A stretch of DNA of 64,000 nt from Seongchinamella unica (GTDB taxonomy: Bacteria; Pseudomonadota; Gammaproteobacteria; Pseudomonadales; Halieaceae), in contig NZ_SMSE01000002.1 of assembly GCF_004354085.1 (NCBI RefSeq), positions 1 to 64,000 of the forward strand, given 5' to 3'. Shown here in pieces: positions 12,081 through 49,468 of the stretch (its first letter is position 1; every line of letters starts with the position of its first letter). Under the pieces are notes generated by a model. That model was not told the origin of the DNA and did no database searches. It saw only the letters and a list, made by a program, of their open reading frames with translations. The position numbers were made by a program, and so were the translations under genes.

Positions 12081-13055
12081 TTGATTTATTCAACCGAGAT
12101 GTTGTACCAGGCGTATCGCTCAATGAAGCTGATTCGCGAATTCGAAGAGCGAATGAGAGAAGAATACCAGCGGGGTAAACTGCCGGGCTTTATCCATATG
12201 TACCGTAACCAGGAGGCCATCGCCGTGGGTGCCTGCATGCACCTTGGGGATGAGGACTACATCGCCAGCACTCATCGGGGTCACGGCCATTGTATCGCCA
12301 AGGGCTGCGATATCGAGGACATGCTGTTGGAACTGGCCTGCAAGCAGGACGGAATCTGCAAGGGAAAAGGCGGCTCCATGCACATTGCCGATATGAGCAA
12401 GGGCATGCTGGGGGCCAACGCTATCGTGGGTGGCGGGCCTCCGATCGCCGCCGGCGCCGCCTTGACCGCCCGAACCCTGGGCAATGGCAGGGTCTCCATG
12501 GCTTTTATCGGTGACGGTGCCTCGGATCAAGGCACGGTGGCCGAGGCATTGAACCTGGCGTCTGTATTGCAACTGCCGATGATTTTCATGTACGAGAATA
12601 ATCATTTTGCCGAATTCACCCGAAATCCCAAGCCTGACGGCCGGATTGCCGAGAGAGCGGGTGCCTATGGCATGCCTGCGGTGACTCTCGACGGGACCGA
12701 TTTTTTCGCGGTCTACGAGGCGGTGGCTGACGCGGTACAGCGCGGTCGCCAGGGACGGGGCCCTTCGGCCATTGAGGCTATCGCCTCGCGCTACTACGGT
12801 CATTTTGAAGGTGATGCCCAGCAGTACCGGGACTCAACGGAGCTTGAGTCGTCGCGCATCACCTCCGACCCCATTCCCAAGTTTCTGGCCGATTCCCGGT
12901 GCAGCGATCTTGAGACGGCCCGCATCGAGCAGATTGATGCAGAAATTCTGGCGAGCCTTGATGCCGGGGTGGAGCGCGCGCTGGCCGCCGCCGACCCGCT
13001 GCCGGAGCAACTCTACAGCGATGTCTATGTGAACTACCGGGGAGAATCCGCATGA
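12081..13055 (+). CDS. Thiamine-dependent 2-oxoacid dehydrogenase E1 alpha
   Basis: The alpha subunit (324 aa) of a pyruvate/acetoin/branched-chain-type dehydrogenase, which decarboxylates a 2-oxoacid or acetoin on ThDP. The ThDP motif GDGASDQGTVAEALNLA...ENN is complete, and STHRGHGHCIAKG and GICKGKGGSMHIAD are family signatures. The TTG start at 12081 has GGAG at a good distance; an ATG at 12099 is the alternative. The stop overlaps the E1 beta start by 4 bases, indicating translational coupling. The closest subfamily by motif is acetoin-dehydrogenase-like (AcoA), but the substrate cannot be told from the sequence. A paralogue lies at 35968-36951. Confidence 0.9.
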   Translation: MIYSTEMLYQAYRSMKLIREFEERMREEYQRGKLPGFIHMYRNQEAIAVGACMHLGDEDYIASTHRGHGHCIAKGCDIEDMLLELACKQDGICKGKGGSMHIADMSKGMLGANAIVGGGPPIAAGAALTARTLGNGRVSMAFIGDGASDQGTVAEALNLASVLQLPMIFMYENNHFAEFTRNPKPDGRIAERAGAYGMPAVTLDGTDFFAVYEAVADAVQRGRQGRGPSAIEAIASRYYGHFEGDAQQYRDSTELESSRITSDPIPKFLADSRCSDLETARIEQIDAEILASLDAGVERALAAADPLPEQLYSDVYVNYRGESA

Positions 13056-14035
13056 GCAAGCTCTCTATCCGTGAAGCGATCAACCAGGTGTTGCATGAGG
13101 AAATGGCTCGCGACGATCGGGTGGTGGTTATGGGCGAAGATGTCGCCAACCGGGACAATGGCGGCGTGTATGGCATTACCGCCGGTCTGGCGGAGAAATT
13201 CGGTGAACTGAGAGTGATCGATACACCGATCACCGAGTCGGCGATTATCGGTGCTGCGGGCGGTGCGGCACTGACCGGCTTGCGCCCGGTGGCTGAGTTG
13301 ATGTTCATCGATTTTCTCGGTGTCTGCCTGGATCAGTTGATGAACCAGATTGCCAAGTTCCGCTATATGTTCGGCGGCGGTGCCACCACGCCGGTGACAA
13401 TCCGCACCATGATTGGCGCGGGCGCAGGCACGGGGCCCCAGCATTCAGCGATTCTATACCCCATGCTGGTCGCCATTCCCGGCATCAAGGTGGTGGCCCC
13501 GAGCAACGCCTACGACGCCAAGGGCCTGCTCGCGCAGGCGATCCGTGACGATGATCCGGTGGTGTTCTGCGAGCACAAAGCCATCTACACCGAGGAATGC
13601 GAAGTGCCCGACGAGCCCTTTACCATCCCCTTTGGCCAGGCGCGTACCGTATGCGAGGGCACCGATGTCACGGTAGTTGCATTTTCGCGGATGGTGCTGC
13701 TGGCGGAGCAGGCTGCGACACAACTGGCCGCCGAAGGCATTTCCGTTGAAGTGATAGATCCCAGAACCCTGTCACCGCTGGATGATGAGGCGATACTGGC
13801 CAGTCTGCAGAAGACCGGCAGGTTGGTGGTTGTCGATGAGTCCAATCCCTACTGCAGCATGGCTTCGGAGGTCTCCAGTATCGTGGTGGACCGGGGTTTC
13901 GATTACCTCGATGCTCCGATCAGGAAAGTGACCGCGCCGCATACACCCGTGCCTGCCAGCCCCGTGCTGGAACTCGAGTATGTGCCGTCGGTCGCCGATG
14001 TGGAGGCCGCGATACGGGAGGTGGTTGCTTACTGA
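13052..14035 (+). CDS. 2-oxoacid dehydrogenase E1 beta
   Basis: The beta subunit (327 aa) of the same E1 heterotetramer. Typical stretches are VVVMGEDVANRDNGGVYGIT, DTPITESAIIGAAGGAALTG, RYMFGGGATTPVTIRT and the C-terminal transketolase domain with IDPRTLSPLDDEAIL. It starts inside the E1 alpha stop (ATGA overlap), and its own stop overlaps the next ATG by one base. The gene that follows is not E2 but a cytochrome c-PQQ dehydrogenase, an unusual arrangement. Confidence 0.9.
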   Translation: MSKLSIREAINQVLHEEMARDDRVVVMGEDVANRDNGGVYGITAGLAEKFGELRVIDTPITESAIIGAAGGAALTGLRPVAELMFIDFLGVCLDQLMNQIAKFRYMFGGGATTPVTIRTMIGAGAGTGPQHSAILYPMLVAIPGIKVVAPSNAYDAKGLLAQAIRDDDPVVFCEHKAIYTEECEVPDEPFTIPFGQARTVCEGTDVTVVAFSRMVLLAEQAATQLAAEGISVEVIDPRTLSPLDDEAILASLQKTGRLVVVDESNPYCSMASEVSSIVVDRGFDYLDAPIRKVTAPHTPVPASPVLELEYVPSVADVEAAIREVVAY

Positions 14036-15945
14036 TGAACACGGCCGTGCTTAAAATGGGTTTTATCGCCCTGCTGGAAAGGACCGTTGCCAGCCTCCGA
14101 GGTGGCGCTTGGCGGCTACTGGCAGCGCTGGCTCTGACGGGTATAGCCCTCAGCGCGCAATCCGCGGTAGATCCTGGCCAGGCGGTTTATCAGCAACACT
14201 GCGCCCAATGCCACGAGGGCAATGTGCCCCGCGCGCCTCATAACATCATGTTCCGCATGTCGCAGCCGGAGGAAATTCTGTATGCCCTCACCGAGGGCGT
14301 CATGAAGCAGCAGGCGGCCACGCTTAGCGCGCAGCAAAGGGAGCAGGTTGCGAATTATCTGGCAGGCTCCGATGCGGCCGACGTGGACCGTTCAATGCCC
14401 ATGTGCGCCGGTTCGCCCCCGGTTGCCAGCCCGGGTCAGGGTTTGCTGGGTGCCTGGGGGTTTGACGAGAGAAATCATCGCTTTGTTGATGCAGAAACGG
14501 CGGGCCTGCGGCGTGAGGACCTGGCGCGCCTGGAACTCAAGTGGGTGTTCGATTTTCCGGGCGCCAGCCGGGCGCGATCACAACCCACGGTGTATGGCGA
14601 TGTGATCTTTGTTGGCTCGCAACACGGTACCGTCTACGCCATTGACATCGACACCGGCTGTGTCTACTGGAGTTTCCAGGCGGACGCTGAAGTACGTTCG
14701 GCGATCAGTATTGAACCGCCGGTCGCTGGCGCCCCGGTGGTGCTCTATTTCGGCGATGTTGAAGGCAATATTTATTCGCTGGATGGGGCCAGGGGCGTGG
14801 TTCGTTGGCGTGCCCACCTGGAAGACCACGCCAATGCCACCATCACCGGTTCGCCCCGCCTGTATGGCGACCGACTTTTTGTGCCCATGTCCTCCCGCGA
14901 GTGGGCGACCGCAGCCGACCCGCATTACCCCTGTTGTACCTTTCGTGGCGGTATCGCAGCCTACAATAAAGACAACGGCAAATTGGTCTGGAAGAGCTAT
15001 TCCATTCCCGAGCAGCCGGTGGACACCGGCAAGCGAAATGCATTGGGTGTGCCCATTATTGCGCCTTCAGGCGTACCCATCTGGAATTCGCCCACGGTGG
15101 ATGCGGCCAGGGGACTGCTGTATGTCGGCACGGGAGAGTCCTACTCTTCGCCGGCACACCGCAACAGTGACGCGGTACTGGCTTTTGACCTGAAGACCGG
15201 CGAGTTGGTCTGGAGCCAACAACTGACGGCAAACGACGCCTGGAACATGAGCTGTTTCATTGGCTCGAGCTATAACTGCCCGGAGGAAAATGGGCCCGAT
15301 ATGGATATTGGTGCCCCGCCGGTGCTGATTTCACTGCCCTCCGGCAAGGACATATTGGTGGTGGGGCAGAAGAACGGCACTGTGTACGGCCTTGATCCCG
15401 ACAATGAGGGCGCAATTGTCTGGCGGCGAAAAGTGGGTCTGGGTGGCTACGCCGGTGGCATCCACTGGGGTCTGGCGACGGATGGGACTACCGTGTATGC
15501 CCCCAATGCCGATACCGATTTTATCGGCCGCTTCAAGGCGGAGCGCTTCCCGGGCGTGTTCGCCCTGGATGCTGCAACCGGGGAGCAGCGCTGGTATACC
15601 CGGGCAGTTGAGGATTGTAGGGAGCAGGAAAAGCCCGCCTGTGATGCAGGGGTTTCCGCCGCGGCCACGGCCGTCCCGGGCCTGGTGTTTGCCGGCGGAT
15701 TCGACGGCCAGTTGCGCATCTACGACAGCGCCACTGGCGAGGTCCTGTGGCGCTACCAGACCAATCGTGAATTTAATTCCGTTGCCGGTCGCCAGGCCCA
15801 CGGTGGGTCGATCGAGTCCGACGGGCCAGTGGTCTACCGGGGCAATCTATTGGTGAACTCAGGTTACCTGTTCGGTGACCGCTTGCCCGGCAATGTGCTG
15901 CTAAATTTCGCCGTGTCCGGCAGCGATGATAAGGAGGCCCAGTAA
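14035..15945 (+). CDS. Cytochrome c-PQQ dehydrogenase (PVA dehydrogenase-like)
   Basis: A 636-aa periplasmic quinohaemoprotein. A hydrophobic N-terminal signal (WRLLAALALTGIALSAQSA) is followed by a short cytochrome c domain with CAQCH (C56, C59, H60) and then PQQ-type beta-propeller repeats such as GTVYAIDIDTGCVYWSFQAD. The order, cytochrome first and propeller second, and the length match the polyvinyl-alcohol-dehydrogenase-like family, which oxidises secondary alcohols and passes electrons to the respiratory chain. It overlaps E1 beta by one base and E2 by one base, so it is embedded in the 2-oxoacid dehydrogenase operon. The actual alcohol is unknown. Confidence 0.83.
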   Translation: MNTAVLKMGFIALLERTVASLRGGAWRLLAALALTGIALSAQSAVDPGQAVYQQHCAQCHEGNVPRAPHNIMFRMSQPEEILYALTEGVMKQQAATLSAQQREQVANYLAGSDAADVDRSMPMCAGSPPVASPGQGLLGAWGFDERNHRFVDAETAGLRREDLARLELKWVFDFPGASRARSQPTVYGDVIFVGSQHGTVYAIDIDTGCVYWSFQADAEVRSAISIEPPVAGAPVVLYFGDVEGNIYSLDGARGVVRWRAHLEDHANATITGSPRLYGDRLFVPMSSREWATAADPHYPCCTFRGGIAAYNKDNGKLVWKSYSIPEQPVDTGKRNALGVPIIAPSGVPIWNSPTVDAARGLLYVGTGESYSSPAHRNSDAVLAFDLKTGELVWSQQLTANDAWNMSCFIGSSYNCPEENGPDMDIGAPPVLISLPSGKDILVVGQKNGTVYGLDPDNEGAIVWRRKVGLGGYAGGIHWGLATDGTTVYAPNADTDFIGRFKAERFPGVFALDAATGEQRWYTRAVEDCREQEKPACDAGVSAAATAVPGLVFAGGFDGQLRIYDSATGEVLWRYQTNREFNSVAGRQAHGGSIESDGPVVYRGNLLVNSGYLFGDRLPGNVLLNFAVSGSDDKEAQ

Positions 15946-17111
15946 TGCCAAAACTGATTCCCATAACGATTCCCAAGTGGGGAATCGAGATGGAGCACGG
16001 CACCATTTCCGAATGGCGTGTTGCGGAGGGTGACAAGGTCGCCAAAGGCGACGAGTTGGTCGATATCGAAACGGACAAGATCGTCAACAGCTTTGAAGCC
16101 GCCCATGATGGCGTCCTGTTGCGTATTCTGGCGGAGGAGGGAGATGATCTGGCGGTGGGAACCCTGATAGGGGTCATGGCCAGCGAACAGGTCGCGGAGG
16201 ATGAGATAGACGCCTTCATTGCCGCCAATTCCCTCGCCAGCCCAGTGGCTGCTGAGGAGGCCGATGCGCGAGCCGATCAGATTGCCGCCACTGCCACAGA
16301 GCAGTCTGGGTCTCAGCCTGCCCGCATCTCGCCAGCACTGAGGCGTAAAGCAGAGCGCCTCGGCCTTGACCCCCGGACCATCGCCGGCTCCGGCTACGGG
16401 GGCAGGATTTTGCGCGATGATATCGAAGCTGCCCGTGCCAGCGGTGACGGAATGCCGCTGCGACAGTTGCAGGGTGCACAGAAAACCATCGCCGAACGCA
16501 TGACCCTGGCCAAGCAGAACATCCCGCATTTTTATTTGCAGCGTGATTGCACAATGGAGGCCCCGCTGGCTGCGTTGGATGCACTGCGCGAACAGTCGAG
16601 TGCACCCGTCACGATTAACCACTTGCTGGTGCATGCGGTAGCGGGTGCGCTGCGGGCATATCCCTCGCTGAATATCAATGTTCTCCCCAATGGGATCAGG
16701 GAACTCGACAGTATTGATATCGCCATCGCGGTTGAAACCGGCGACAGCCTGCTGACGCCGGTGATCAGGGATATTGGCGAAGCTGATATTACCCGGATTG
16801 CACAACTGTCTGCGGAAGTCGTGGCGCGCACGCGCAACAAGGAATTAACTGCACAGGATCTCGAAGGCGGGGCCATCACCGTGTCGAACCTGGGCATGCT
16901 GGGCGTCGACAGTTTCACCGCGATCATCAACCCGCCGCAGGTGATGATTCTGGCGGTTGGAGGGATCCGGCAACGCGTGGTGTTGGATAATGGCCAGGTG
17001 ACAGCCGAGCGCTTCTGCTCTTTGTCGTTGGCCTGCGATCATCGGGTGATCAATGGCGCTACCGGCGCCAGATTCCTCGCCGCAATCTGCGAGGGTCTGG
17101 ATTCGATGTAG
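15945..17111 (+). CDS. 2-oxoacid dehydrogenase E2 (dihydrolipoyl acyltransferase)
   Basis: A 388-aa E2 core protein. One lipoyl domain has its lipoylated Lys45 in ETDKIVNSF. A peripheral-subunit-binding domain follows (SPALRRKAERLGLDPRTIAG), then the acyltransferase core ending in CDHRVINGATGARF. The catalytic His366 is present, but the motif DHRxxDG has Asn370 in place of Asp, which may lower or change activity. AAGGAGG precedes the ATG. No E3 gene is in this operon. The second E2 at 33753-34964 keeps the canonical Asp. Confidence 0.88.
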   Translation: MPKLIPITIPKWGIEMEHGTISEWRVAEGDKVAKGDELVDIETDKIVNSFEAAHDGVLLRILAEEGDDLAVGTLIGVMASEQVAEDEIDAFIAANSLASPVAAEEADARADQIAATATEQSGSQPARISPALRRKAERLGLDPRTIAGSGYGGRILRDDIEAARASGDGMPLRQLQGAQKTIAERMTLAKQNIPHFYLQRDCTMEAPLAALDALREQSSAPVTINHLLVHAVAGALRAYPSLNINVLPNGIRELDSIDIAIAVETGDSLLTPVIRDIGEADITRIAQLSAEVVARTRNKELTAQDLEGGAITVSNLGMLGVDSFTAIINPPQVMILAVGGIRQRVVLDNGQVTAERFCSLSLACDHRVINGATGARFLAAICEGLDSM

Positions 17112-33752: not shown

Positions 33753-34964
33753 TCAGTTGCCCAGCGCATCGATCTCGCGTTTCAGCGCCGCCATAAAGCT
33801 GGCGCCTACCGCCCCGTCGATGGCGCGGTGGTCGCAGGAAAGAGTGGCGTTTATGACGGTGGCCACTGCCAGTTCGCCGTCTTTCGCCACCGGTCTTTCC
33901 TGCGCCGCTCCCAGTGCCAGAATGGCGCCCGCTGGCGGATTGATGATGGCGGTGAACTGGTCGATGCCAAACATGCCAAGGTTGGATAGGGTGAATGAGG
34001 CGCCGCTGATGTCTTCCCGGGTGAGGTCTCCGGCCTTTGCCCTGGCCGCCAGTTCGACGGTGGCTGCTGCAATTTGCTCCGGCGCCATATTCTCCGCACC
34101 ACGAATGGTGGCGGGGAACAGGCCGTCATCCGTGGCGATGGCCACGCCGATATTGGCCTGCTGGAACTGGTGTACGCTGTCGTCGATCACGTTGATGTTG
34201 ACTCGCGGTTCGGCGAGCAGGGCTCGTGCCACGCAGTACACCAGCAGGTCGTTCAGTGAAATTCGGGTGGAGGCCTTGTCATTGAGTGCTCTGCGATAGC
34301 GCAGCAGGCCATCGATTTCCCACTCGACGGACAAGTAGTAGTGGGGTATCTCCTGCTTGGCGTCGACCAGACGCCGGGCGGTGGTCTTGCGGGTGGCACT
34401 GAAGGGTGTGATCTGCACGCCGTTATCATTGCTTGCGGGGCCTGCTGGGGCATCGCCGGAGGCGGCGGCTCGGACGTCCTCCTGGGTTATGCGGCCATTG
34501 CGACCGCTGCCGCTCACCGTGCCCAGGTCGACACCCAGTTCTTCCGCCAGGCGCCGCACTACCGGGCTGGCCCGGCGTCCACCTGCCGCAGGCGCGCCAG
34601 CGGCTGCAGCCGGTGCCGATGCTGCAGCGGCAGGGGCCGGTTCCTCCGCCTGGGGTGCTTCTTCCGTCGCCACACCGGCGTAGTCGGTGATATAGGCATC
34701 AATGCTGGCGTCGTCGACATCCGCAGCGGCGATGATACCGAGTAAGTGGCCCACCCGGCGGGCTTCCCCTTCTTCAACCAGTCTCCGGCGCAGAATGCCG
34801 TCGGCAGGGGCTTCCCATACGTTGACGATCTTGTCGGATTCGATCTCCAGGATTTCCTCGCCCTTGCTCACCGCGTCACCGGGCTGCTTGAGCCAGCTAT
34901 TGATGGTGCCTTCGACCATCTCGATGCCCCACTTGGGAATAGCGATCGGGTAGATATCGCTCAT
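33753..34964 (-). CDS. 2-oxoacid dehydrogenase E2, second copy
   Basis: A 403-aa E2. A lipoyl domain (Lys45 in ESDKIVNVW) is followed by an Ala/Pro-rich linker (PAAAASAPAAAAG), a subunit-binding domain (SPVVRRLAEELGVDLGTVSG) and an acyltransferase core ending CDHRAIDGAVGASF, with catalytic His379 and Asp383 intact. It shares the IPKWGIEM opening with the E2 at 15945-17111, so the two are paralogues, but this one has the longer linker. The start overlaps the E1 beta stop by 4 bases. Confidence 0.92.
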   Translation of the reverse strand: MSDIYPIAIPKWGIEMVEGTINSWLKQPGDAVSKGEEILEIESDKIVNVWEAPADGILRRRLVEEGEARRVGHLLGIIAAADVDDASIDAYITDYAGVATEEAPQAEEPAPAAAASAPAAAAGAPAAGGRRASPVVRRLAEELGVDLGTVSGSGRNGRITQEDVRAAASGDAPAGPASNDNGVQITPFSATRKTTARRLVDAKQEIPHYYLSVEWEIDGLLRYRRALNDKASTRISLNDLLVYCVARALLAEPRVNINVIDDSVHQFQQANIGVAIATDDGLFPATIRGAENMAPEQIAAATVELAARAKAGDLTREDISGASFTLSNLGMFGIDQFTAIINPPAGAILALGAAQERPVAKDGELAVATVINATLSCDHRAIDGAVGASFMAALKREIDALGN

Positions 34965-35965
34965 TGCAGGGTCTCCCGGATAGCCGCCTGAATCTTGTCA
35001 ATAGACGGCACGTATTCTGCCTCGAGGTCGGGGGAAAAGGGCACCGGGGTGTGCGGCGCACACACCTGCTTGACCGGTGCCTGCAGGGAGCGGAACGCTT
35101 TCTCGCTGACCATGGCGGCGATATCCGCGGTAAGCCCGCAGCGGGGAGGGGATTCGTCCACCACCACCAGGCGACCGGTGGCTGCCACGCTCTCCAGGAT
35201 CGTTTCGCTGTCCAGCGGCGAGGTGGTGCGCGGGTCGACCAGGTCGCAGCTGATGCCCTGGGCTTCCAGCCCGTCGATCGCCGCCATGGCGCGGCCCACC
35301 ATCTGGCCGAAGGCCACCACGGTGACATCGTCGCCTTCCCGTGGCATCGCCGCTTCGCCGAAGGGAATGGTGTAGGGCTCGTCCGGCACCTCACAGGCCT
35401 CCTGGTACAGGGCCTTGGGTTCGAAGAACAGCACCGGGTCGTCGTCGCGAATGGCGCTGAGCAGCAGTCCCTTGGCATCGTAGGCGTTAGAGGGAATTAC
35501 TACCTTCAGGCCGGGCACCGCGGTCATCATCTGGTACATGGTCTGGCTGTGCTGGGCGGCGGCGCTGAAGCCAGCGCCGCAGGCGAAGCGGATCACTGCC
35601 GGGCAGCGGGTCTTGCCGCCGAACATGTAGCGGAACTTGGCCATCTGGTTGACGATCTGGTCCATGCATACGCCGATAAAGTCTGAGAACATGATCTCCG
35701 CCACCGGACGCATGCCGACCAGGGCGGCGCCCGCAGCGGCGCCGACGATGGCTGACTCCGAGATGGGGGTATCGATACAGCGCAGGGGGCCGAACTTTTC
35801 ATACAGGCCTGCGGTAACGCCGAAGACACCGCCGGCACACCCGACAGTGCCATCGGAGCCGTTGCCGCCGGCCACGTCTTCACCGATGACGAATACGGTG
35901 TCGTCGACTGCCATCTCCTGGTGCAGGGCCTCGTTGATGGCATCGCGCATGGTTTTCTCTGGCAT
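34961..35965 (-). CDS. 2-oxoacid dehydrogenase E1 beta, second copy
   Basis: A 334-aa E1 beta subunit with VFVIGEDVAGGNGSDGTVGC, VFGVTAGLYEKFGPLRCIDT, PISESAIVGAAAGAALVGMR and FRYMFGGKTRCPAVIRFACG. Compared with the first copy it has an extra Gly/Cys-rich insert (GNGSDGTVGCAGG) after the first motif. GGAGG is 7 bases before the ATG and overlaps the end of E1 alpha. Confidence 0.92.
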   Translation of the reverse strand: MPEKTMRDAINEALHQEMAVDDTVFVIGEDVAGGNGSDGTVGCAGGVFGVTAGLYEKFGPLRCIDTPISESAIVGAAAGAALVGMRPVAEIMFSDFIGVCMDQIVNQMAKFRYMFGGKTRCPAVIRFACGAGFSAAAQHSQTMYQMMTAVPGLKVVIPSNAYDAKGLLLSAIRDDDPVLFFEPKALYQEACEVPDEPYTIPFGEAAMPREGDDVTVVAFGQMVGRAMAAIDGLEAQGISCDLVDPRTTSPLDSETILESVAATGRLVVVDESPPRCGLTADIAAMVSEKAFRSLQAPVKQVCAPHTPVPFSPDLEAEYVPSIDKIQAAIRETLQ

Positions 35966-35967
35966 GA

Positions 35968-36951
35968 TCAGGCACCTCCCTGCGCATAGTTGATATAGAC
36001 ATCGCTATCGAGATCGGCCGCGGTCGGGCGGGGGGCTGTCCTGGCTTCGGCCACCGCCTCGTCGATCAGGCTCAGCACCTCGGCGTCGATGGTATCCAAC
36101 TCCTCTGCGCTGACGTCACCATACTCCCCCACCCGAGCGCGGAAGTGCTGCAGGCAATCCCGCTCCCCCCGCAGGTTGTCCAGTTCACCCTCGCCGCGAT
36201 AGCCCTGGGGGTCGCCCACGAAGTGGCCCTGGAAGCGGCCCTGTTCACAGAAAATGCCCGCCGGTCCGTTGCCGGCACGGGCGTGGCCGATGGCCTCACC
36301 CGCCGCCCGGTACACATCAAAAAAGTCGGCGCCGTCGGCGACAAACACCGGGAAGCCAAAGCCTTCGGTGCGCGCCTTGAGGTCGTCGCAGCCTACCGCG
36401 TAGTTGATGGAGGTGTGTTCCGAGTAGTAGTTGTTCTCGATCACGAAGATGGCCGGCACCTTGAGCACCACCGCCAGGTTCATGGCCTCGAAGCAGGTGC
36501 CCTGGTTGACCGAGCCGTCACCTGAGAAAGATACCGATACATTGTCGCGGCCGCGGATCTTGGCCGCCAGTGCCGCGCCCACAGAGATGGGCGGGCCGCC
36601 TGCGACGATGCCATTGGCGCCGAGAATTCCATTGTCCACGTCGGCAATATGCATGCTGCCGCCCTTGCCCTTGCACAGGCCGCTGGCAGCACCCCATAGC
36701 TCCGCCATCATGCCTTTTACGTCGGCACCGCGGGCAATACAGTGACCGTGGCCGCGGTGGGTGGAAATTATGGTGTCGTTGCCGGACAGGTGTTCACATA
36801 CGCCCACCGCGTTGGCTTCCTGGCCGGTATAGAGGTGAGTGAAGCCGGCGATCTGGCCGTTCATGATCTCGGTGAAGGTGCGCTCCTCGAACTCGCGTAT
36901 GGTTTTCATCTGCCGGTATGCCCGCAGCAATCCGTCTTTATCCAGGCCCAT
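35968..36951 (-). CDS. 2-oxoacid dehydrogenase E1 alpha, second copy
   Basis: A 327-aa E1 alpha subunit. The ThDP motif is GDGSVNQGTCFEAMNLA...ENN, with ISTHRGHGHCIARGADVKGM and SGLCKGKGGSMHIADVDNGI. It pairs with the downstream E1 beta (2-base gap). The start has AGGAGCGAACAG upstream. Similar in length to the copy at 12081-13055, but clearly diverged. Its substrate may be acetoin or a 2-oxoacid; no E3 or acetoin-specific gene (acoX/acoK) is near. Confidence 0.92.
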   Translation of the reverse strand: MGLDKDGLLRAYRQMKTIREFEERTFTEIMNGQIAGFTHLYTGQEANAVGVCEHLSGNDTIISTHRGHGHCIARGADVKGMMAELWGAASGLCKGKGGSMHIADVDNGILGANGIVAGGPPISVGAALAAKIRGRDNVSVSFSGDGSVNQGTCFEAMNLAVVLKVPAIFVIENNYYSEHTSINYAVGCDDLKARTEGFGFPVFVADGADFFDVYRAAGEAIGHARAGNGPAGIFCEQGRFQGHFVGDPQGYRGEGELDNLRGERDCLQHFRARVGEYGDVSAEELDTIDAEVLSLIDEAVAEARTAPRPTAADLDSDVYINYAQGGA

Positions 36952-47003: not shown

Positions 47004-48575
47004 ATGGCAACGAAGCGAAACAAGCCGAAAAACGCCACTGGCACTGGTACCCTGAGGCTACGGCGGGTGGGTATCGATACCTACCACGAGAACGTCGCCT
47101 ACCTGCACCGGCAGTGCGAAATCTACCGGGCAGAGGGTTTCCAGGCGCTGGCCAAGGTAGAAATTTGCGGTGAGAACGACCAGTACATCCTGGCGGTGCT
47201 GAACGTCGTCGATGACGAGGCACTGGTGGGATCCGATGAACTGGGGCTCTCGGAGGAGGCATTTGCCGCTCTGGGCCTCAACAGCGGAGCGCCGGTGCGT
47301 GTTCGTCACGCCGAGCCGCCCGCATCCATGGATGCGGTGCGACGCAAAATCGAGGGCGAACGCCTGGATGCGGGGGAATACCTCGCCATCACCCGGGATA
47401 TCGCTGATCGCCGCTATGCCAAGATGGAAATCGCCGCCTTCCTCGTGGCTTCAGGGCAGACAGGACTGGATCGCGACGAGGTCATGAATCTCACCCGGGC
47501 CATGGTCGCCCAGGGCGACCGCCTGCAGTGGCCCGGTGACCTGGTGGCGGACAAGCATTGCGTCGGCGGATTGCCCGGGAACCGCACCTCCATGCTGGTG
47601 GTCCCCATAGTGGCGGCCCACGGCCTGCTGATCCCCAAAACCTCGAGCCGCGCCATTACCTCGCCGTCGGGAACCGCCGATACGATGGAGGTACTCGCCT
47701 CGGTCGAGTTGACACCCGAGCAACTCCATGCGGTTGTGCAACAGGAACGCGGTGCCCTGATCTGGGGAGGGACCGCCAACCTGGCCCCGGTCGACGACAT
47801 CCTGATTTCCGTTGAACGCCCCCTCGGGCTCGATTACCAGGGCCAGATGGTGGCATCGATCCTGGCCAAGAAGATTGCGGCGGGATCAACTCACCTGGTT
47901 ATCGATATTCCCGTCGGCAGAAGCGCAAAGGTCAGGCACATGCGTGACGCGCTGGCGCTGCGCAAGTTGTTCGAGTATGTGGCGGATTGCCTTGGCCTGT
48001 TCGTTCAGGTGATCGTCACGGATGGCCGGCAGCCCGTGGGCCGGGGCATTGGACCGGTGCTCGAGGCCCGCGATGTCATGCAGGTACTGAGAAACGATCC
48101 CGATGCCCCCGCTGACCTGCGCCAGAAAGCCTTGCGATTGGCCGGCCGTGTGATCGAGTTCGATCCAGACGTGCGTGGCGGTGACGGCTTCGACATAGCT
48201 CGCGACATCCTCGATTCAGGTCGCGCCCTGAAAAAAATGGAGCGCATCGTCGCGGCGCAGGGTGCGCAGCAACAGCGCTTCGAACCCGGGTCACTGGTCA
48301 GGGAGGTTAAAGCTGAGACCGCAGGCACAGTGATCGACATTGATAATTACCAGATGGCGCGCATCGCCCGCATGGCCGGCGCACCTATGGACAAGGGTGC
48401 CGGAGTCGACCTGCTGCGGAAGCTCGGCGACCGGGTGGAAAAAGGCGAAACGCTATATCGCGTGCATGCAAGTTTTCCGGCGGATTTTCGTTTTGCCGGC
48501 AACCTGGTTGACAGTGACAACGGGTACCAACTGGGCGCACCGGATCTGGTCCCGGAGATCTATGCGGAGTTCTGA
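47004..48575 (+). CDS. AMP phosphorylase-like thymidine phosphorylase family protein
   Basis: A 523-aa protein of the long archaeal-type thymidine-phosphorylase branch. An extra N-terminal domain (about 1-90) precedes the core. [20 protein letters not shown] and [20 protein letters not shown] match the AMP-phosphorylase signatures rather than the shorter DeoA/Pdp. The family splits NMPs with phosphate into base and ribose-1,5-bisphosphate. The C-terminus ([20 protein letters not shown]) is the usual barrel-sandwich domain. It overlaps the PRPP-synthetase-like gene by one base. The bacterial reaction is inferred. Confidence 0.85.
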
Positions 48576-49468
48576 TGTTAGTACTGGGATTTACCGATTC
48601 GAACAAACAGGCTACCGAGCTGGCGGCGGCACTGGGTGTGCCCCATGCCGGTATCGAGGTGCATCGCTTTCCGGATGGAGAGAGCCGGGTATGCCTGCCG
48701 CCCCAGCTGCCTGAGCATGTCGTGCTCTTTCGCAGTCTCCACTACCCCAACGAGAAACTGCTGGAACTGATGCTCGCCACGGAGTCCGCACGGACGCTTG
48801 GCGCCCGTGAGGTGACACTCGTCGCCCCTTATCTGTGCTACATGCGTCAGGACAAGGCTTTTCATCCCGGTGAGGCGGTGAGCCAACGCATCGTCGGGCG
48901 CTTCCTGGCCGATCTCTTCGACACCCTGGTCACCGTGGATCCCCATCTTCACCGGGTGCATGACCTCGCACAGGCGGTGCCGGTGAAGCGGGCCTTCGCC
49001 CTGAGTGCCGCCCCTGCCATGGGCCAGTTTCTCACTGGGCGCAAAGCGGAGGCGCTGCTGGTTGGGCCGGACCAGGAATCTGAACAGTGGGTCAGTACCG
49101 TCGCCCGGGGTGCCGGGCTCGCTTACGCGGTGGCGAGCAAAACCAGGCACGGTGACCGTGAGGTGGACGTCAGACTGCCGCCACGGGATTACACCGACCT
49201 GCACGCGGTGCTGGTGGACGATATGGCGAGCACCGGTCGTACCCTGGCCGCAGCGGCAAGGGCGCTGCTGGATGCCGGCGCGGCACGGGTGGATGTCCTT
49301 GTGACTCACGCCCTGTTCGTTGGCGATGCTTTGGAGGTCCTGAGGGCGGCCGGTATCTCAGAGGTGTGGAGTTCGGATAGCATTCCCCATGCCAGCAATG
49401 CCTTCGCCCTCGCTGCGGACCTGGCCCGGAGCATCGCGCCCGGTCGCGGTGAGACCGTGTTTCCTTAA
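48575..49468 (+). CDS. Ribose-phosphate pyrophosphokinase-like protein
   Basis: A 297-aa Prs-like protein. It has the two phosphoribosyltransferase-type domains with LVAPYLCYMRQDKAFHPGEA (flexible loop), DTLVTVDPHLHRVHDL (catalytic His region) and a PRPP loop VDDMASTGRTLAAAAR where the classical TGGT is TGRT. KTRHGDREVDV replaces the usual KRR loop. It is shorter than housekeeping Prs (about 315 aa). The variant loop and fusion-like coupling with the phosphorylase suggest a specialised role in nucleotide-ribose recycling. GGAG precedes the ATG. Confidence 0.85.
   Translation: MLVLGFTDSNKQATELAAALGVPHAGIEVHRFPDGESRVCLPPQLPEHVVLFRSLHYPNEKLLELMLATESARTLGAREVTLVAPYLCYMRQDKAFHPGEAVSQRIVGRFLADLFDTLVTVDPHLHRVHDLAQAVPVKRAFALSAAPAMGQFLTGRKAEALLVGPDQESEQWVSTVARGAGLAYAVASKTRHGDREVDVRLPPRDYTDLHAVLVDDMASTGRTLAAAARALLDAGAARVDVLVTHALFVGDALEVLRAAGISEVWSSDSIPHASNAFALAADLARSIAPGRGETVFP

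What the first reader, a model, noticed from the sequence alone, without database searches (positions are those of the whole stretch)
47004..49468. Archaeal-type AMP phosphorylase fused in operon with a variant PRPP synthetase
AMP phosphorylase makes ribose-1,5-bisphosphate, which in archaea feeds RuBisCO. Here no RuBisCO or R15P isomerase is near. Instead a short Prs with an altered PRPP loop (TGRT) overlaps by one base. This may be a bacterial route turning NMP ribose back into PRPP or another sugar phosphate.
Basis: partly seen in the sequence, partly recalled or inferred. Interest (0 to 1): 0.62.

Follow-up and report, generated by a model that had tools for sequence, protein, structure and literature searches.

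The report
Bacterial RNA-ribose recycling gene pair
Two overlapping genes, found together in many bacteria and in part of them beside a gene for an RNA-cutting enzyme, look like a pathway that splits RNA building blocks and sends their sugar back into metabolism without the archaeal isomerase step; what the second enzyme does is an open and easily tested question.

Summary
47004-48575 encodes a type-2 (NMP/AMP-type) phosphorylase; 48575-49468 a short PRPP-synthetase homologue (PrsL, NCBIfam PRK07199); they overlap by one base. The pair is strongly conserved: in 229 class genomes PrsL occurs in 46 of 50 with the phosphorylase and 1 of 179 without; in a phylum sample 30 of 32. No class genome has an R15P isomerase above cut-off. 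A minority of loci add phosphoketolase(-like) and/or acetate kinase genes. In G494, which lacks PrsL, the phosphorylase is fused to PhnN, the kinase that turns R15P into PRPP; this fusion recurs. Best reading: a bacterial RNA/NMP-ribose salvage module whose PrsL takes the R15P. Its reaction is unproven; an ordinary PRPP synthetase remains possible.

The parts
47004..48575 (+). NMP (AMP-type, type-2) phosphorylase, 523 aa (P0001); predicted NMP + Pi -> nucleobase + ribose-1,5-bisphosphate
   Evidence: active-site columns K212-S220, D277, S285, K309 identical in 44 of 44 family members (window included), with K309 = F in 3 of 3 type-1 thymidine phosphorylases
48575..49468 (+). PrsL: class-III-like PRPP synthetase homologue of PRK07199, 297 aa (P0002)
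   Evidence: model pLDDT 94.7, pTM 0.91, best PDB match 1u9y TM 0.85/0.92
48573..48577 (+). One-base overlap of stop (TGA) and start (ATG)
   Evidence: Sequence
49070..49090 (+). Altered loop from the metal-binding Asp on: D166-Q-E168-S169-E-Q-W172 (class I: D-x-G-G-x-x-R)
   Evidence: E168 68/68 against G 30/30; S169 65/68 against G 30/30; W172 68/68 against R 30/30
49217..49243 (+).

Best explanation
The pair is the core of a bacterial ribose-salvage module that runs RNA -> 5'-NMP -> nucleobase + ribose-1,5-bisphosphate (R15P) -> pentose-5-phosphate pool. Step 1 (RNA to NMP) is by a beta-CASP ribonuclease, beside or fused to the phosphorylase in part of the carriers and encoded on another contig in this genome: inferred, about 0.7. 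Step 2 (NMP + Pi -> base + R15P) is by the window's phosphorylase: inferred from homology and active-site identity, about 0.85. Step 3 is by PrsL, which I think acts on the R15P made next door by Prs-type phosphoryl transfer, most likely moving the C1 phosphate to AMP or ADP and releasing R5P for the pentose phosphate pathway or phosphoketolase. Use of R15P in any direction: about 0.5; the R5P-forming version: about 0.28; a PhnN-like version, R15P + ATP -> PRPP + ADP: about 0.22. In Bradyrhizobium diazoefficiens the homologous operon is part of the low-oxygen (FixK2) response; whether that holds for the window's organism is unknown.
For: Pairing: 46 of 50 against 1 of 179 class genomes, 30 of 32 in the phylum sample; 74 of 81 loci (80 named plus window) have the phosphorylase just upstream on the same strand; 79 of 86 fetched loci hold both; mirror-tree r 0.88, n 84; in a 12-genome subset 0.86 for the pair against 0.53 and 0.38 with class I Prs. 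RNase: beta-CASP gene adjoining in 24 of 86 loci (22 genomes), fused once; genome-wide 44 of 50 against 54 of 179. No R15P isomerase above cut-off in 229 genomes; PhnN in only 7 of the 50 phosphorylase genomes (6 over its cut-off) and not in the own genome. Phosphoketolase, phosphoketolase-like and/or acetate kinase genes in the same run or close by in Methylophaga, Legionella fallonii, Criblamydia, Rhizobium X9, Sulfitobacter, G400 (two copies), G035, G325. Low-oxygen induction of bll3117, bll3116 and bll3115 and FixK2 dependence of bll3117 and bll3115 and of phosphoketolase/acetate kinase bll2518-2517 (PMC6515984, PMC9104804, passages). Family-fixed E168/W172 beside the metal-binding Asp.
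Against: PrsL keeps the catalytic and substrate residues checked except E. coli R99, so an ordinary PRPP synthetase cannot be excluded. PrsL stands without the phosphorylase in the held flank in 6 of the 80 named loci and in genome G173. In 62 of 86 loci no beta-CASP gene adjoins. Only 1 of 80 named close relatives has phosphoketolase, and only 5 of 80 the RNase, in the held flank (flanks differ in length). The 64-kb window holds no other module gene, and the 300 bases upstream no FNR-type box (best 3 mismatches). PhnN is itself commoner in phosphorylase genomes (7 of 50 against 5 of 179, p 0.005), so some carriers have another possible R15P consumer. No enzyme activity is known to me for any bacterial member.
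Confidence: 0.45

Rival explanations
1. PrsL is an ordinary, class-III-like PRPP synthetase (R5P + ATP -> PRPP + AMP), free of ADP inhibition, and is linked to the phosphorylase because both serve nucleotide salvage.
For: F32, D34, E36, R91, Q92, D93, H124, D166, K189, R191, D215, D216, T/S220, T223 kept; fold matches archaeal Prs; the ten E. coli allosteric residues named in PMC6332680 (passages) are not kept in PrsL, as expected of a non-allosteric enzyme; G044 (97% complete) has PrsL and no other Prs over cut-off; a 2026 preprint states that catalytic residues are kept across Prs classes (PMC13252144, section 6 part 1); in four Rubrivivax-type loci PrsL lies after a gene that reads as dihydroorotase, without the phosphorylase.
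Against: Most carriers checked already have a class I Prs (21 of 23 PrsL genomes among the 94). A canonical Prs does not use R15P, so the tight link would have no clear logic. Invariant Glu at a canonical Gly position.
Confidence: 0.35
2. PrsL is a functional stand-in for PhnN: R15P + ATP -> PRPP + ADP, so the module turns NMP ribose into PRPP.
For: PhnN is fused to the same phosphorylase in G494 (168.6 bits, cut-off 156), a genome without PrsL, and in Variovorax SRS16 (179.7), Pacificitalea (183.9), G531, G569, G534 and Paraburkholderia 22B1P, where PrsL was not looked for; G174, without PrsL, has a separate PhnN.
Against: The fusions looked at sit beside nadC, another context; G244 has neither PrsL nor PhnN; phosphoketolase operons call for R5P rather than PRPP; transfer of the gamma phosphate is not Prs chemistry.
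Confidence: 0.22
3. The pair is a thymidine phosphorylase plus a redundant Prs, kept together by chance or by plasmid hitch-hiking.
For: NCBI names the family thymidine phosphorylase; the gene is patchy (1 of 8 genomes of the genus) and also on plasmids (103 plasmid records match PrsL at E <= 1e-20, some perhaps ordinary Prs).
Against: Type-1 thymidine phosphorylases (3, over the TIGR02643 cut-off) differ at K309, R194, T219, S220 and others; pairing across many families; two different gene orders with the RNase on two subtrees (quick tree).
Confidence: 0.06

Closest known systems
Archaeal NMP (AMP) phosphorylase and pentose bisphosphate pathway (T. kodakarensis TK0352, R15P isomerase, RuBisCO)
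   Same: First enzyme: same subfamily (TIGR02645 over cut-off), active-site columns alike
   Different: R15P isomerase not found above cut-off in 229 class genomes; PrsL, and in some loci phosphoketolase and acetate kinase, appear instead; AMP_phos equivalog cut-off not met (484 of 535); RuBisCO not searched
Class III (archaeal) PRPP synthetase, e.g. M. jannaschii 1u9y
   Same: Fold, length and catalytic residues; the class I allosteric residues are absent
   Different: PDxE...W in place of PDxG in the loop after the metal Asp; gene partner; bacterial carriers that mostly have a class I Prs too (21 of 23)
PhnN, ribose 1,5-bisphosphokinase (PRPP-forming)
   Same: Partner of the same phosphorylase, as a fusion, in G494 (no PrsL) and other records
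   Different: Unrelated fold (guanylate-kinase-like; weak guanylate kinase hits); not found in the window's genome
B. diazoefficiens bll3117-bll3116-bll3115 operon
   Same: Phosphorylase-Prs-MBL order; B. septentrionale and G285 have the same order with a protein matching beta-CASP RNases
   Different: The window lacks the third gene and a FixK/FNR box

Membership tests
NMP/AMP phosphorylase | Over the curated cut-off of TIGR02645 / NF003338 | tested here: met
   605.5 over 434.6; 692.9 over 434
NMP/AMP phosphorylase | Over the AMP_phos equivalog cut-off TIGR03327 | tested here: not met
   484 against 535; so not filed as that equivalog
NMP/AMP phosphorylase | Nucleotide-site residues (Tk 168, 194-199, 203, 256, 264, 288; list recalled from HAMAP, not from a call) | tested here: met
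   44 of 44 family members keep them; three type-1 thymidine phosphorylases differ at several, e.g. K309 -> F in 3 of 3
NMP/AMP phosphorylase | Phosphorolysis of NMPs to R15P | not testable with these tools
   needs an assay
PRPP synthetase | Over the cut-off of TIGR01251 / NF005537 | tested here: met
   193.3 over 113; 375.5 over 322
PRPP synthetase | Catalytic Lys/Arg (recalled) and the metal, nucleotide and R5P contacts of E. coli Prs (F35, D37, R99, H131, D170, D220, D221, T225, T228) | tested here: met
   K189, R191, F32, D34, H124, D166, D215, D216, T/S220, T223 kept; the exception is E. coli R99 (K94, variable)
PRPP synthetase | Gly two places after the metal Asp (PDxG) | tested here: not met
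   Glu in 68 of 68 against Gly in 30 of 30 class I and Gly in the two archaeal and one Thermus sequences printed
PRPP synthetase | PRPP made from R5P + ATP | not testable with these tools
   needs an assay
Archaeal pentose bisphosphate pathway | R15P isomerase in the genome | tested here: not met
   0 of 229 genomes over TIGR00511 cut-off; own genome 159 against 314.1 bits
Archaeal pentose bisphosphate pathway | Form III RuBisCO | not tested
   no RuBisCO search was run

The most novel reading that the evidence does not exclude
A complete bacterial 'RNA fermentation' pathway: beta-CASP ribonuclease, NMP phosphorylase, PrsL acting as a new R15P:AMP (or ADP) phosphotransferase that saves the glycosidic-bond energy as ADP/ATP, then phosphoketolase and acetate kinase; the bacterial counterpart, without R15P isomerase, of the archaeal pentose bisphosphate pathway, used at low oxygen and spread partly on plasmids.
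Probability: 0.2. Interest if true: 0.88.

Novelty: new variant of a known kind. Interest (0 to 1): 0.62.

Why it matters
R15P metabolism is usually treated as an archaeal matter (or a phosphonate by-product in bacteria). If the reading holds, about a fifth of the sampled genomes of this class (50 of 229) can open nucleotides to R15P, and a Prs family filed as an ordinary PRPP synthetase does a different job. It would give a function to proteins annotated 'thymidine phosphorylase' and 'ribose-phosphate pyrophosphokinase', and would explain a low-oxygen-induced operon in a nitrogen-fixing symbiont. One purified protein and four substrate mixes decide it.

Tried and rejected
TGRT as the key feature: rejected, because position 222 is variable and two members even have Gly. 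FNR box as a general regulator: 5 of 70 upstream regions with at most 1 mismatch against about 2% of 639 control genes and about 1% in shuffles; weak, and the window's best has 3 mismatches; dropped for this genome. Loss of the housekeeping Prs as proof that PrsL makes PRPP: among the 94 genomes, 2 of 23 PrsL genomes and 5 of 71 others lacked a class I hit; G120 then showed a fragment of one, so only G044 remains and proves nothing. A first ORF caller and a second missed high-GC genes; their counts are not used. Script 26 stopped with an error after printing its lists. The careful tree did not finish; the quick tree is reported, with SH-aLRT support 79 (RNase upstream) and 92 (RNase downstream). 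Two phosphorylase-without-PrsL cases in the class sample were contig ends (G086 ends in the phosphorylase, G151 in PrsL); G009 has a PrsL-like gene elsewhere (182.5 bits to TIGR01251). G500's phosphorylase reads as broken about half-way; described only. Fisher tests are not corrected for relatedness. Literature: no paper on the pair's function came up in searches of this library, which lacks most subscription journals; of the 91 papers and the 528 I saw only the 20 and 12 listed.
Full report
WHAT IS IN THE WINDOW. Two + strand genes, 47004-48575 and 48575-49468, overlap by one base. The first encodes a 523-residue protein of NCBIfam NF003338 (692.9 bits) and TIGR02645 (605.5 bits), over both cut-offs, but below the cut-off of the AMP phosphorylase equivalog TIGR03327 (484 against 535). 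Its closest solved relatives are 4ga5/4ga6 and 4ga4 (E 5.5e-98 for 4ga5), labelled putative thymidine phosphorylase there and recalled as the T. kodakarensis AMP phosphorylase. The second encodes a 297-residue protein of NF005537/PRK07199 (375.5 bits), closest by sequence and by predicted fold to archaeal PRPP synthetases. I call it PrsL. The genome has its own class I Prs elsewhere. The flanking genes on both sides read as fatty-acid/acyl-CoA genes on the other strand (ORF reading only). No beta-CASP, phosphoketolase, acetate kinase, PhnN or NadC homologue was found among the window's ORFs with the queries used.

THE PHOSPHORYLASE IS OF THE NMP TYPE. In 44 aligned family members, window included, the nucleotide-site columns (R194, K212-S220, G223, T224, D277, S285, K309) are invariant. 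Three type-1 thymidine phosphorylases from related genomes, all over the TIGR02643 cut-off, differ at R194, K212, T213, S215, A217-S220, D277 and K309 (K to F). The list of AMP-binding positions in the T. kodakarensis enzyme was recalled, not read in a call. That enzyme splits AMP, CMP and UMP (PMC9700705, passages) and is reported to accept all natural NMPs (PMC8376864, passages). TIGR03327 is not met, so I file the window protein as a bacterial member of the type-2 subfamily, not as the archaeal equivalog.

THE PAIR IS CONSERVED. In a class sample of 229 genomes, NF003338 was found at E <= 1e-100 in 50 and NF005537 at E <= 1e-60 in 47; 46 genomes have both, 4 the phosphorylase only, 1 PrsL only. 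Of the four, G086 and G151 are cut by contig ends; G174 and G244 have no PrsL. In a phylum sample of 259 genomes, 32 have the phosphorylase and 30 PrsL; all 30 also have the phosphorylase; this sample overlaps the class sample in a few genomes. Of the seven others one is a truncated contig; six have none in the held flank, four of these being Rubrivivax-type loci after a gene that reads as dihydroorotase (no family test). Of 87 stretches fetched around phosphorylase genes, 86 gave a phosphorylase call (the other is the PhnN fusion of G494) and 79 of those also PrsL. The two proteins' distances correlate (r 0.88 over 84 pairs, 0 of 999 permutations as high); in 12 genomes with all three proteins it is 0.86 for the pair against 0.53 and 0.38 with class I Prs. 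In the window's genus 1 of 8 genomes has the gene, and plasmids carry it, so it probably moves horizontally. The pair's G+C is 0.63 against 0.60 for the window, no sign of recent foreign origin.

WHAT IS SPECIAL ABOUT PrsL. I compared 68 PrsL (window included) with 30 class I Prs. Both groups keep F32, D34, E36, R91, Q92, D93, D122, H124, D166, K189, R191, D215, D216, T223 and H245. E. coli Prs contacts reported in PMC9232217 (passages) map to such residues, except R99, which is not kept. The ten E. coli allosteric residues listed in PMC6332680 (passages) are not kept. The fixed family change follows the metal-binding Asp: E168 in 68 of 68 (Gly in 30 of 30 class I), S169 in 65 of 68 (Gly in 30 of 30), W172 in 68 of 68 (Arg in 30 of 30). 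In type I phosphoribosyltransferases this loop holds the pyrophosphate (recalled). An acidic residue there could disfavour the second phosphate, which is the structural hint for a monophosphate (R15P) reading; it is an inference.

A RIBONUCLEASE BELONGS TO THE MODULE IN MANY GENOMES. In genome G093 one 954-residue open frame carries a beta-CASP ribonuclease (PF00753, PF10996, PF07521) at its N terminus and the phosphorylase at its C terminus, followed by PrsL. In the 86 loci a beta-CASP gene lies in the fetched stretch in 27 and adjoins the pair (overlap or gap up to 205 bases) in 24, from 22 genomes, often with 4-base overlaps; the G093 fusion is not in that count. Genome-wide, 44 of 50 phosphorylase genomes have a beta-CASP gene against 54 of 179 others (Fisher p 1e-13, not corrected for relatedness). 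The window's genome has one, on another contig. On the quick tree the loci with the RNase upstream and those with it downstream fall on different subtrees (support 79 and 92), so the link was probably made or rearranged more than once. Against generality: in 62 of the 86 loci none adjoins, and only 5 of the 80 named close relatives show one in the held flank.

FURTHER OPERON MEMBERS. Phosphoketolase, a phosphoketolase-like protein (annotated xylulose 5-phosphate 3-epimerase; well under the phosphoketolase cut-offs) and/or acetate kinase lie in the same run of genes or close by in Methylophaga NORP33 (acetate kinase, phosphoketolase, phosphorylase, PrsL), Legionella fallonii, Criblamydia sequanensis, a chlamydia, Rhizobium X9, Sulfitobacter dubius, G400 in two copies, G035 and G325. 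This is the context expected if ribose ends in the phosphoketolase route. It is a minority: 4 of the 86 loci and 1 of 80 named loci. In B. diazoefficiens bll3115, bll3116 and bll3117 are all raised at low oxygen; bll3117 and bll3115 are listed as FixK2-dependent within a predicted operon bll3117-3116-3115, as are phosphoketolase and acetate kinase bll2518-2517 (PMC6515984 and PMC9104804, passages). B. septentrionale shows the same order with a universal stress protein gene upstream.

WHO TAKES THE R15P? The archaeal answer, R15P isomerase, was not found: 0 of 229 genomes reach the TIGR00511 cut-off; 138 have weaker hits, up to 220 bits, probably MtnA. PhnN is present in 12 of 229 genomes (11 over cut-off) and in 7 of the 50 with the phosphorylase (6 over cut-off), more often than in the rest (5 of 179, p 0.005). 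Most telling, in genome G494, which has no PrsL, a PhnN domain (TIGR02322, 168.6 over 156) is fused to the phosphorylase. The fusion recurs in G531 (91%, with one stop in the aligned stretch), G569 (58%), G534 (55%), Variovorax SRS16, Pacificitalea manganoxidans and Paraburkholderia 22B1P; PrsL was not looked for in these. A NadC-like gene lies next to the fusion in the six places looked at (G494, G534, G569, Variovorax, Pacificitalea, Paraburkholderia), confirmed by family model in Variovorax. So at least one bacterial line joins this phosphorylase to an R15P kinase. The simplest reading is that PrsL is the partner for R15P elsewhere. The nadC context differs, however, and G244 has the RNase and the phosphorylase with neither PrsL nor PhnN.

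MECHANISM. Prs moves a diphosphate from ATP to the C1 hydroxyl of R5P, reversibly (established knowledge). The same geometry without the second phosphate is R15P + AMP <-> R5P + ADP. This is my favoured non-canonical reaction (about 0.28) because it returns ribose where phosphoketolase operons need it, saves energy, and fits the loop change. R15P + ATP -> PRPP + ADP (about 0.22) fits the PhnN parallel. Plain PRPP synthesis (about 0.35) fits the kept catalytic residues and is the strongest single rival. None is shown.

COMPARISON AND NOVELTY. The 2026 preprint PMC13252144 (abstract, section 6 part 1, passages) defines twelve Prs classes; PrsL may be one of the bacterial ones, but the passages read give no gene context and no test of R15P. 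I found no paper on the pair's function in this library. The families are known; the three-gene module, the two fusions and the missing step are, as far as these searches show, not described. I rate it a new variant of a known kind.

Noticed in passing
L204:7425-10080; L230:6159-9154; L231:6197-9163: A nadC-like gene followed by a PhnN-phosphorylase fusion, beside transporter genes in two of the three; could turn quinolinate into nicotinate with recycling of PRPP (NadC, then NMP phosphorolysis, then PhnN).
   Followed up: partly
L164:1016-3880: Natural fusion of a beta-CASP ribonuclease with the NMP phosphorylase (954 aa), followed by PrsL.
   Followed up: yes
L126:10877-11539 and 13 other named loci: A gene for a DUF1614-type membrane protein (Pfam tested in L126 only) follows PrsL in 14 of 80 named loci and is present in 12 of 86 fetched loci; function unknown.
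   Followed up: partly
L129, L132, L148, L161: Rubrivivax-type loci hold PrsL after genes that read as pyrimidine-synthesis genes, without the phosphorylase in the held flank.
   Followed up: no
L205:4096-5970: Phosphorylase gene that reads as broken about half-way, beside a beta-CASP gene on the other strand.
   Followed up: no
window 12081-17111 and 33753-36951: Two sets of genes that read as 2-oxoacid dehydrogenase E1 alpha, E1 beta and lipoyl E2, on opposite strands (ORF reading only).
   Followed up: no
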